Source of the DNA: Amylostereum areolatum
Lineage: Eukaryota > Basidiomycota > Agaricomycetes > Russulales > Stereaceae
DNA length: 64,000 nucleotides
Reading direction: 5' to 3'
Assembly (NCBI GenBank): GCA_012932865.1
Contig: SAXG01000001.1
Location: 919,693-983,692, forward strand
A program made the translations under genes and the position numbers. Below are positions 15,468-17,420 of this stretch, in pieces (the first letter of the stretch is position 1; the number at the start of each line of letters is the position of its first letter). The notes under the pieces were generated by a model. It was given only the letters and a program-made list of their open reading frames with translations, was not told the origin of the DNA and made no database searches.

Positions 15468-16239
15468 AGGATGTTCTAATGGTGCGTCGTCTCGACGCCT
15501 GGCGTAAAGGGCGCAAGTCTGTCATACAAAGGACGACTAATACATATAACTGTACGTTTCCTAACCGATATTCTCTGTGGGATTTCATTCTGTCTATCTT
15601 CACACCCCTGTGTTATTTTCGATCCATTTCGGCCACATCTCTTCATGAAGAGCTCGCGTATATCTCATCCCATTTTTTCTCATGTAGTTCCGCGGATACC
15701 CTTGACGTGTATTTTCTATGAGCAGTCGATACAGTACGACCGTGACGATGTTTTCGTGCATGCCTTTCTCTCACACATTGTGTTTTTTCGTCTATCCACC
15801 TCTTGTATTTTTGGGTACTATGATCGTATGAAGTTTCTGTGATTTGCCAGGACGTTATATGGAGTATATACACATGACCGCATGGAATCTCGCTGGCGAC
15901 GACCAGGGGACGGTCAGCGGATTAAGGGGGGGGGCGGTGGTCGTGAGAGCGGGTAGGATTGAGAATTCGAGGTTGCTCCGAGGTTCCGAGCCTCCGAGGC
16001 ATAAGCGGGGGTAGATATAAACCTGGACTTTCGGGAGACTTGGTCGCGGCATCTCCTCGGGCGCCTACACGTTGTTTGGACCGAACAAACAAGCGACGTG
16101 GCAAGACCGGTCGTGGCTGTCATCCCTCTCTCTCTCAGTTACGACCACCACCTCCTCCACGTAGCCCCTGCTCTTCCGCAGTATCCCGCCCCTCTATTTC
16201 ACTAATCGTCTCTCCTTTCCCTCTCCTCTCACACTCACC
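15468..16239. other. Intergenic; 5' leader of the HAC1-like gene
   Basis: This holds the 3' flank of the preceding gene and the promoter and leader of the bZIP gene. A TATA-like TAGATATAAA lies near 16012-16021. From there to the ATG at 16240 the leader is pyrimidine-rich and I see no upstream ATG. No other gene is apparent. Confidence 0.55.
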
Positions 16240-17420
16240 ATGGCCCGCAACGACTCCGCACGCGCTCTTCCATCCCCCTCCGAGTCTCCCGCTCCGTCTT
16301 CCTCCGCTCTTCCCTCCCCATCCTCCACCAAATCTCGTCCTCGTCCCGACGACAACGACGACGACCACCCTCGCAAACGCAGCCGTACCGATCTCACCGC
16401 CGATGAACGCAAGGAGGCCCGCGCCCACAGAAACCGCATCGCCGCCCAAAACAGCCGCGATCGCCGCAAGGCTCAGTTCTCTGCACTCGAGCAGCGAATA
16501 GCCGAGCTCGAGACCGAAAACTATGCCCTCCGCACCACCGTAGGCGTCTCCGCCCTCCGTGATACCGAGCAACACCGGGCCGTTGAAAGTGCCCGGGAAC
16601 GCGAGAACCAGGAGCTCCGCGAGCGCGTACGAACCCTCGAAGCGGGCTGGGACGCTATCGTCAAAGCCCTGCAACTGCACGGAATACCCCCTGGTATCCC
16701 ATCCCTCAGCGCACCCCAACCACAGGCGCCGACGCCGAAACCCACCCCCAAGGAGTCTGCACAGCCTTCGCGCGCACGCTCGTCCACCCCTTCATCCTCA
16801 ACCACTACCACCTTTCCGGTTCTCGTTCCCCCCTCGCCCATCTTCCCCCTCTCGCCTGCACCTTCCCAGTCGTCCATGAACAGCTCTGGCTTCTTTGACG
16901 AACCCGAGTCCACTCGCCACCTAGCACGGGTGGCGACCACCGCAGCTCTAGCGGTGCCCCAGCAGCGGGTGGATTCGGCCCACTCGGCTTTGACGCAGAA
17001 GTACTTCAACTCGACTACAGCAGCATGGGTGCGCCTTCTAGCGCAGCGTCGCCCCCGGACCTCGACGATGCGACGATGGACAGCCTCTTCCGGGAGATTC
17101 TCGCGTCCCCTTCGCTGTCAGCAGCTTCGCTTCCGAGTGCTGCCTTCACCGGCGCGCCGGTGAGCTGCGGGGCAGAGGAGAAGACGGACACGCTGGGCGG
17201 CGGGGATGCACAAGGGGACGGCAGCGAGCGGGCGGAGCGGGAGATCCAGAAACTGTTGGAGTGGTTACCATCTGTGGTTGCGGATGGGGCGGACACAGAC
17301 GGCGGGTTGTTCAGCGCGGAGAGCATGAACACAGACTCGGAAGCCCTGTCGGCGCTGGACCTGGGTCTCGGCGTGTGGGACATGGCACCCCCGCTGTCTC
17401 TCGGTCCAGAGGTTTTCTAA
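16240..17420 (+). CDS. HAC1: HAC1/XBP1-type bZIP transcription factor of the unfolded protein response
   Basis: A bZIP regulator of ER-stress genes. The DNA-binding basic region is at residues about 57-80, with NRIAAQNSR at 65-73, followed by a leucine zipper starting at LEQRIAELE. The basic-region neighbourhood (LTADERKEARAHRNRIAAQN) is the HAC1/Cib1/Hxl1 type. The genomic frame runs 16240-17163 and would give 307 residues with an unrelated Arg-rich tail. A second open frame continues to 17420 with a clearly coding acidic tail (DLDDATMDSLFREIL). Removing the 20 nt at 16943-16962 joins them: 703 + 458 = 1161 nt, 386 residues. Those 20 nt are bounded by two CNG|CNG sites like Ire1 targets. I therefore read it as an Ire1-spliced mRNA. 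I see no convincing conventional intron. Confidence 0.9.
16943..16962 (+). promoter_or_regulatory. Candidate unconventional (Ire1-type) 20-nt intron in HAC1 mRNA
   Basis: The 20 nt begin after CCG (CCG|CAGC, cut after 16942) and end after CAG (CAG|CAGC, cut after 16962). Both fit the CNG|CNG(N) Ire1 cleavage consensus. The 3' site is a 7-nt loop closed by CCC/GGG plus two G-U pairs. Around the 5' site, CACCGC (16938-16943) pairs perfectly with GCGGTG (16951-16956). Twenty is not a multiple of three, so excision switches the reading frame from the 307-residue to the 386-residue product. Twenty-nt introns are known in hac1/hacA of filamentous ascomycetes. Splicing itself is not shown by DNA. 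Confidence 0.82.

What the first reader, a model, noticed from the sequence alone, without database searches (positions are those of the whole stretch)
16920..16985. Candidate 20-nt Ire1-spliced intron in a basidiomycete HAC1 gene
The bZIP frame runs into an unrelated tail, while a clearly coding acidic tail continues in another frame. Exactly 20 nt (16943-16962) lie between CCG|CAGC and CAG|CAGC, both Ire1-type CNG|CNG sites. Removing them joins the frames into a 386-residue protein; unspliced mRNA gives 307 residues. The 3' site sits in a 7-nt loop closed by CCC/GGG. Known HAC1-type introns differ in length between lineages: 20 nt in filamentous ascomycetes, 26 in animal XBP1, and about 56-65 in Cryptococcus and Ustilago as I recall. 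A 20-nt form in a wood-decay basidiomycete would therefore be informative.
Basis: partly seen in the sequence, partly recalled or inferred. Interest (0 to 1): 0.88.

Follow-up and report, generated by a model that had tools for sequence, protein, structure and literature searches.

The report
Mushroom HAC1 stress-switch intron, 38 nt
A wood-rotting fungus's HAC1-like gene holds two overlapping reading frames that would likely be joined when the stress sensor Ire1 cuts a predicted 38-nucleotide piece, not the proposed 20, out of its messenger RNA, at a start site that breaks the published Ire1 rule and whose hairpin is predicted to recur in other mushroom-forming fungi.

Summary
The gene is a single-copy bZIP gene of HAC1/XBP1 kind from Amylostereum chailletii or a near-identical genome: NCBI protein P0002 equals this locus once a 41-nt gene-model gap is removed. 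The frame break, the 3' site CAG|CAGC (16962|16963) and the acidic tail are real. Of 240 proteins in hand, 13 show the 38-nt type of join: 11 read H[L/S]A|AG and two Mycena models HPA|AGG, a join three bases upstream on both sides. None shows the 20-nt type. This predicts intron 16925-16962 and a 380-aa product. The 5' cut lies in a loop UAG|CACG on a perfect 8-bp stem (pair probability 0.75-1.0) that synonymous recoding reproduces in 0.05% of trials. Two reading frames of Lentinula raphanica fix the same hairpin letter for letter. Ire1 and Trl1 domains are in the genome. New: the 5' loop fails the CNG|CNGN rule, and inferred introns of relatives run mostly 35-50 nt. No RNA reads of this species were available; Ire1 dependence is inferred, and most public gene models use other joins.

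The parts
16240..16924 (+). exon 1 (coding from ATG 16240): bZIP, linker, up to the first base of the Ala codon of STRHLA
   Evidence: bZIP_2 and bZIP_1 at residues 55-101 over their cut-offs
16925..16962 (+). predicted Ire1-type intron, 38 nt
   Evidence: 13 relatives with the 38-nt type of join, 11 of them at exactly this point; codon phase and hairpin
16914..16936 (+). 5' splice hairpin: stem 16914-16921 with 16929-16936 (8 Watson-Crick pairs), loop 16922-16928 UAG|CACG; a further U-G pair can close it to a 5-nt loop
   Evidence: identical in Lentinula raphanica
16955..16971 (+). 3' splice hairpin: UGCCC [CAG|CAGC] GGGUG, 7-nt loop, 5 bp with 2 G-U
   Evidence: low probability, 0.22; residue before Q-R is L, Q or R in 103 of 104 distinct relatives
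16963..17420 (+). exon 2 in the tail frame: acidic C-terminal region ending GPEVF and stop
   Evidence: 60 of 90 tail-frame relatives end in VF
17161..17163 (+). stop codon of the unspliced 307-aa frame
   Evidence: paired in the hairpin 16938-16956; absent in Lentinula
16904..16978 (+). predicted outer helix 16904-16913 with 16969-16978, bringing the two exon ends together and competing with the 3' hairpin
   Evidence: fold (z -2.47; 1 of 200 shuffles folds as well)
17001..17041 (+). 41-nt GT-AG gap used by the public gene model P0002; judged an annotation compromise
   Evidence: P0002 equals the window with this stretch removed

Best explanation
This is a HAC1/XBP1-type gene whose unspliced reading frame encodes a 307-residue bZIP protein, and Ire1 is predicted to remove 38 nt (16925-16962) from its mRNA, which would join the bZIP part to an acidic tail and give 380 residues. 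Shown by calls or sequence: the two frames, the bZIP domain, the complementary 8-bp arms around UAGCACG, the join in related proteins, and Ire1 and Trl1 domains in the same genome. Inferred: under ER stress Ire1 would cut UAG|CACG in the 5' loop and CAG|CAGC in the 3' loop, Trl1 would ligate the exons, and the acidic-tail form would be the active transcription factor. The 5' loop lacks the C at -3 and the G at +3 of the published CNG|CNGN rule, so Agaricomycete Ire1 would have to accept an unequal pair of loops.
For: 13 of 240 homologous proteins carry the 38-nt type of join, 0 the 20-nt type. By the name columns, the only unnamed proteins among the 90 tail-frame ones are P0061, P0149, P0215 and P0220; these and P0236 sit on contigs of 1.2-2.4 kb and all five have this join. 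After the join, residues follow the out-of-frame reading of read-through relatives: 8 of 13 beat all 300 shuffles, best 25 of 25. Hairpin: 8 bp, 7-nt loop, G|C at loop positions 3|4, right codon phase; 0.0005 of 20,000 synonymous recodings reach 8 bp there, 0.00035 over all in-phase registers. Same hairpin in Lentinula from two frames. Peptide RHLAR, CHSAR, CHLAR or RHSAR in 104 of 104 distinct read-throughs (the anchor pattern itself asked for H[LSP]AR). Ire1 kinase and Ribonuc_2-5A, Trl1 domains.
Against: No RNA data from this species. 78 of 90 tail-frame models use other joins. Two of the 13 (Mycena vitilis, M. rosella) read HPA, although no protein in hand reads HPAR, so their join lies 3 nt upstream on both sides. 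In 5 of 13 the frame match after the join does not beat all shuffles. Without the phase condition an 8-bp stem turns up somewhere in 14.5% of recodings. The 3' hairpin is weak (0.22). The 5' loop fails the published consensus.
Confidence: 0.8

Rival explanations
1. One reading: Ire1 removes 20 nt (16943-16962) between CCG|CAGC and CAG|CAGC, giving 386 residues.
For: Both borders fit CNG|CNGN exactly and the frames join. The sub-threshold Rfam RF04247 alignment puts its 5' site there. A loose CNG|NNG in this phase is possible in 69 of 104 relatives.
Against: 0 of 240 proteins show this type of join. The site is paired in the predicted fold, no stem above 2 bp can surround it, a strict CNG|CNG is possible in 9 of 104, and it is absent in Lentinula.
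Confidence: 0.08
2. A conventional GT-AG intron restores the frame: 41 nt (17001-17041, as in P0002), or one with an upstream donor such as 56 nt (16869-16924), whose acceptor TAG ends exactly at the 5' cut proposed here.
For: P0002 uses the 41-nt gap. The 56-nt removal joins the frames and gives 374 aa; 15 upstream-donor candidates of 35-200 nt and 20 within 16899-17161 do so. 22 of 90 relatives' models read the tail frame from upstream and 12 of 90 have a DAP|PG join like a 23-nt GT-AG gap.
Against: The models disagree with each other even among Trametes species. The 56-nt version would remove the conserved ESTRHL peptide; the 41-nt one would remove residues corresponding to the LQLEL stretch of polypore tails. 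The five short-contig proteins all have the HLA|AG join, whose ends are not GT-AG or GC-AG in any register (from the sequence).
Confidence: 0.08
3. No splicing: the frame break is an assembly error or is bridged by ribosomal frameshifting.
For: Only one assembly was seen, and the frame relation alone would fit a small indel.
Against: The same read-through pattern recurs in 104 distinct relatives, P0002 bears the same letters, and 13 relatives show the join.
Confidence: 0.03

Closest known systems
XBP1 intron of animals (26 nt) and hacA/HAC1 intron of filamentous ascomycetes (20-26 nt)
   Same: bZIP gene, frame switch to a new C-terminal tail, 3' loop CNG|CAGC of 7 nt, Ire1 in the genome
   Different: 38 nt; 5' loop UAG|CACG instead of CNG|CNGN. 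Ascomycete lengths and the rule from PMC8071499 passages; the 26 nt of XBP1 is recalled
Cryptococcus HXL1 (56 nt) and Ustilago cib1 (65 nt)
   Same: Basidiomycete Ire1-spliced bZIP genes with introns longer than 20-26 nt (PMC3154848, PMC8071499, passages)
   Different: Shorter here; cib1 is shown in PMC8071499 under the CNG'CNGN consensus and HXL1 is said to have CAG at both borders (passages only; figures not held), unlike the 5' loop here
Rfam RF04247 (bZIP, non-canonical Hac1/Xbp1 intron, Metazoa)
   Same: The only one of 4227 families reported up to E = 10 on 16880-17010; the 3' loop aligns
   Different: 16.4 bits against a gathering score of 41; most of the model's 5' hairpin is gapped in the alignment

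Membership tests
HAC1/XBP1 Ire1-spliced bZIP genes | bZIP domain | tested here: met
   bZIP_2 E 5.3e-11, bZIP_1 E 1.3e-10, both over cut-off
HAC1/XBP1 Ire1-spliced bZIP genes | removal of a short non-GT-AG piece that switches the frame to a new C-terminal tail | tested here: inconclusive
   Seen as a join in 13 of 240 relatives' proteins, not in RNA of this species
HAC1/XBP1 Ire1-spliced bZIP genes | cut sites in two hairpins with 7-nt loops | tested here: inconclusive
   5' stem probability 0.75-1.0, with the loop often narrowed by a U-G pair; 3' hairpin 0.22
HAC1/XBP1 Ire1-spliced bZIP genes | CNG|CNGN at the 3' site | tested here: met
   CAG|CAGC; residue before Q-R is L, Q or R in 103 of 104 distinct relatives
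HAC1/XBP1 Ire1-spliced bZIP genes | CNG|CNGN at the 5' site | tested here: not met
   UAG|CACG at the site supported here; the CCG|CAGC at 16942 fits but is not supported as the cut
HAC1/XBP1 Ire1-spliced bZIP genes | Ire1 kinase-RNase and tRNA ligase in the genome | tested here: met
   Pkinase E 4.6e-36 and Ribonuc_2-5A E 8.7e-23 close together on one strand; RNA_lig_T4_1 E 1.1e-66, tRNA_lig_kinase, tRNA_lig_CPD
HAC1/XBP1 Ire1-spliced bZIP genes | splicing induced by ER stress and dependent on Ire1 | not testable with these tools
   needs RNA from stressed and IRE1-deleted mycelium
Rfam RF04247 | score over the gathering threshold (41 bits) | tested here: not met
   16.4 bits on 131 bases; nothing up to E = 1 on 1701 bases or up to E = 10 genome-wide

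The most novel reading that the evidence does not exclude
Agaricomycete Ire1 works on an unequal pair of loops: a 5' loop [U/C]AG|CACG that breaks the CNG|CNGN rule, held on a stem kept to the letter between Russulales and Agaricales under the near-invariant peptide RHLARVA, and a canonical 3' loop CNG|CAGC, enclosing introns of mostly 35-50 nt. Mushroom-forming fungi would thus run the unfolded protein response through a distinct class of Ire1 substrate that public gene models mostly miss.
Probability: 0.6. Interest if true: 0.7.

Novelty: new variant of a known kind. Interest (0 to 1): 0.56.

Why it matters
The 2014 genome paper of the white-rot fungus Pycnoporus cinnabarinus reported Ire1 and Trl1 but no clear Hac1/XBP1 ortholog (PMC4101180, passages). 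A homolog from Trametes cinnabarina (recalled to be the same fungus under another name) is among the hits here (P0169). The intron borders found here give a concrete target for that missing half of the pathway in mushroom-forming fungi, many of which matter as wood decomposers and enzyme secretors. A 5' loop that breaks the Ire1 consensus is a directly testable question about enzyme specificity. Correct splicing is also needed to annotate the active protein: 12 of 90 tail-frame models in hand have the join supported here.

Tried and rejected
Rejected: the 20-nt intron (see rivals) and its 23-nt variant with CAG|CGGG, which shares the same 5' site. GTGGCG at 16930 as a GT-AG donor to CAG at 16962 or 16965 gives 33 or 36 nt, which does not restore the frame (arithmetic; that donor joins frames only at 17096). 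Pairing of the 5' UTR with the intron region, as described for yeast HAC1, is not above shuffles (64.7% of 300 at least as strong).

Led nowhere: viral contigs hold no relative. Rfam on 1.7 kb gave nothing up to E = 1; RF04247 genome-wide gave nothing up to E = 10 (there 7 of 14 control genomes rang, none over cut-off). A first count of the 3' residue used patterns that stopped too early in some proteins and was replaced. A first frame-compatibility test was off by one residue (last block) and was replaced. The GT-AG list did not cover donors before 16896; one search adds them. Hooks and Griffiths-Jones 2011, the key survey of these introns, is not held, so I cannot say whether it already lists Agaricomycete introns; [quoted passage not shown] Ten paper searches showed, in the passages I read, basidiomycete intron lengths for Cryptococcus and Ustilago only. 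The second bZIP match in the genome (L009) has a different basic region by eye and was not followed further.

Full report
What is there. The window carries a bZIP reading frame from 16240 to a stop at 17161-17163 (307 aa) and, overlapping it, a second frame open from 16899 to the stop at 17418-17420. Pfam finds bZIP_2 and bZIP_1 over their cut-offs. A DNA search finds one copy in the 57-Mb assembly. An NCBI protein of Amylostereum chailletii (P0002) equals this locus letter for letter if 17001-17041 is taken out, so the window is from that species (Russulales) or a near-identical one. Several relatives bear the UniRef label 'X-box-binding protein 1'.

CCG|CAGC (after 16942) and CAG|CAGC (after 16962) are where stated, and taking 16943-16962 out gives 386 residues. 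They are not the only such pair: four CNG|CNG pairs join the frames without a stop (20, 23, 101 and 179 nt). In the predicted fold the 5' one is paired inside a hairpin CACCGC[AGCUCUA]GCGGUG, and its coding peptide cannot form a stem of more than 2 bp around it.

The hairpin that was missed. 16914-16936 folds as UCGCCACC [UAGCACG] GGUGGCGA: eight Watson-Crick pairs, pair probabilities 0.75-1.0 in four folding windows; the first and last loop base form an extra U-G pair about 94% of the time, leaving AGCAC open. Its G|C (16924|16925), at loop positions 3|4, is in the codon phase needed to join the frames with 16962|16963, which makes 38 nt. Recoding the same peptide with the gene's own codon usage reaches 8 bp at this place in 0.0005 of 20,000 trials, and in 0.00035 over all in-phase registers of 16894-16947. 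Without the phase condition some 8-bp stem turns up in 14.5% of trials, so phase and place carry the argument. The whole stretch 16900-17000 folds better than shuffles (z -2.47).

Relatives show the join. Three protein searches, each listing its best 120 of 449, 532 and 469 hits, put 240 proteins in hand, the window's own frame included. Thirteen read H[L/S/P]A followed directly by AG[G/A/V], the product of the 38-nt type of removal; none shows the 20-nt type, also with a broader pattern. Eight are named genome models: Gelatoporia subvermispora, Cristinia sonorae, Trametes maxima, T. elegans, Russula earlei, Mycena vitilis, M. floridula and M. rosella. Two of these, M. vitilis and M. rosella, read HPA; no protein in hand reads HPAR, so their join lies 3 nt upstream on both sides, with the same length removed. 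Eleven of 13 therefore fit the exact cut. Five come from unnamed contigs of 1.2-2.4 kb (P0061, P0149, P0215, P0220, P0236), which I take to be cDNA-derived (inference); reading the name columns against the lists, no other unnamed protein reaches the tail frame. In every register the removed piece lacks GT-AG and GC-AG ends, so ab initio prediction is an unlikely source for the named ones (inference). After the join the 13 follow the out-of-frame reading of read-through relatives: 25 of 25 residues for M. vitilis, 24 of 25 for the Thelephora-like P0149, 23 of 25 for T. maxima, 22 of 25 for R. earlei. In 8 of 13 the match exceeds all 300 shuffled controls; in 5 (P0013, P0175, P0215, P0220, P0236) it does not, perhaps for want of a close read-through partner.

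Conservation at the two sites. Among 190 proteins with the anchor H[LSP]AR[VLM][AV], 154 read through to a 3' motif, 104 of them distinct; 36 do not, most of them gene models with other gaps, some with variant residues. In the 104, the residue before Q-R is L (84), Q (16), R (3) or I (1, a doubtful match in P0177): L, Q and R are amino acids of CNG codons. The 5' peptide is RHLAR (80), CHSAR (11), CHLAR (8) or RHSAR (5), followed by VA (84), VV (14), MA (5) or MV (1); the anchor itself fixed part of this. The next positions vary more. Inferred intron lengths are 29 (1), 35 (4), 38 (19), 41 (6), 44 (17), 47 (32), 50 (21), 53 (2), 56 (1) and the doubtful 74 (1). Some gene models read the tail frame straight through the element, and two frames together fix the codons. 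For Lentinula raphanica both frames come from the same species: ACTCGCCACCTAGCACGGGTGGCGAC is identical to the window, while the rest of the intron differs and holds no CCGCAGC. For Lactarius indigo and two Russula the loop is CAGCACG with G-U pairs in the stem, if the frame-0 peptide of genus-mates is assumed; a Punctularia case gave no solution and was dropped.

Evidence the other way. Of 90 tail-frame models, 78 use other joins: 22 read the tail frame from upstream, 17 read through and jump later (this gene's own model P0002 among them), 17 jump before the 3' site, 12 use a DAP|PG join that looks like a 23-nt GT-AG gap, 10 others. Trametes species disagree: T. maxima and T. elegans have the HLA|AGG join, others the 23-nt gap. 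I read the GT-AG models as gene-finder compromises, but no read data were available to prove it. The 3' hairpin has low predicted probability (0.22; 0.01 in the shortest fold), an outer helix (16904-16913 with 16969-16978) competing with it.

Machinery. The same genome has a kinase domain followed by Ribonuc_2-5A (Ire1 type) on C97 and RNA ligase, kinase and phosphodiesterase domains of the fungal tRNA ligase on C133.

Likely mechanism. The 307-aa frame ends in a basic tail (+15 over 78 residues after HLA); after removal of 38 nt the 380-aa form ends in an acidic tail (-21 over 151 residues). By analogy with HAC1 and XBP1, Ire1 would cut and Trl1 would ligate. The steps from stress to cut to ligation are inferred.

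What is known. Papers seen as passages: PMC3154848 (Cryptococcus HXL1, 56 nt), PMC8071499 (20 nt in Verticillium, 65 nt in Ustilago, consensus CNG'CNGN), PMC6222058 (range in yeasts), PMC6037481 (7-nt loops), PMC11701678 (RF04247, Metazoa), PMC4101180 (no clear Hac1 in Pycnoporus), PMC6116095. The defining survey (Hooks and Griffiths-Jones 2011) could not be read. Filed as a new variant of a known kind: same gene kind, 3' site and frame switch; different length and a 5' loop that fails the consensus.

Noticed in passing
window 15900-16239: No ATG in the 340 nt before the start codon, so no AUG-started upstream ORF lies in that stretch, unlike what is described for some fungal HAC1 mRNAs.
   Followed up: yes
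window 16869-16924: A frame-joining 56-nt GT-AG candidate has its acceptor TAG exactly at the 5' cut proposed here; several relatives' gene models appear to use that TAG as an acceptor (inferred from xTGG reads).
   Followed up: partly
P0169 (Trametes cinnabarina): A homolog exists in the species (by a recalled synonym) whose genome paper reported no clear Hac1/XBP1 ortholog; its gene model jumps from HLAR into the tail.
   Followed up: no
P0097 and P0176 (Mycena): Two Mycena models read HPA|AGG where read-through Mycena relatives read HLAR: the same length removed, shifted by 3 nt at both ends. Unexplained.
   Followed up: partly
L009 (G000:C106): A second bZIP_1 match in the genome, with a different basic region; not a second HAC1 copy by eye.
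   Followed up: partly
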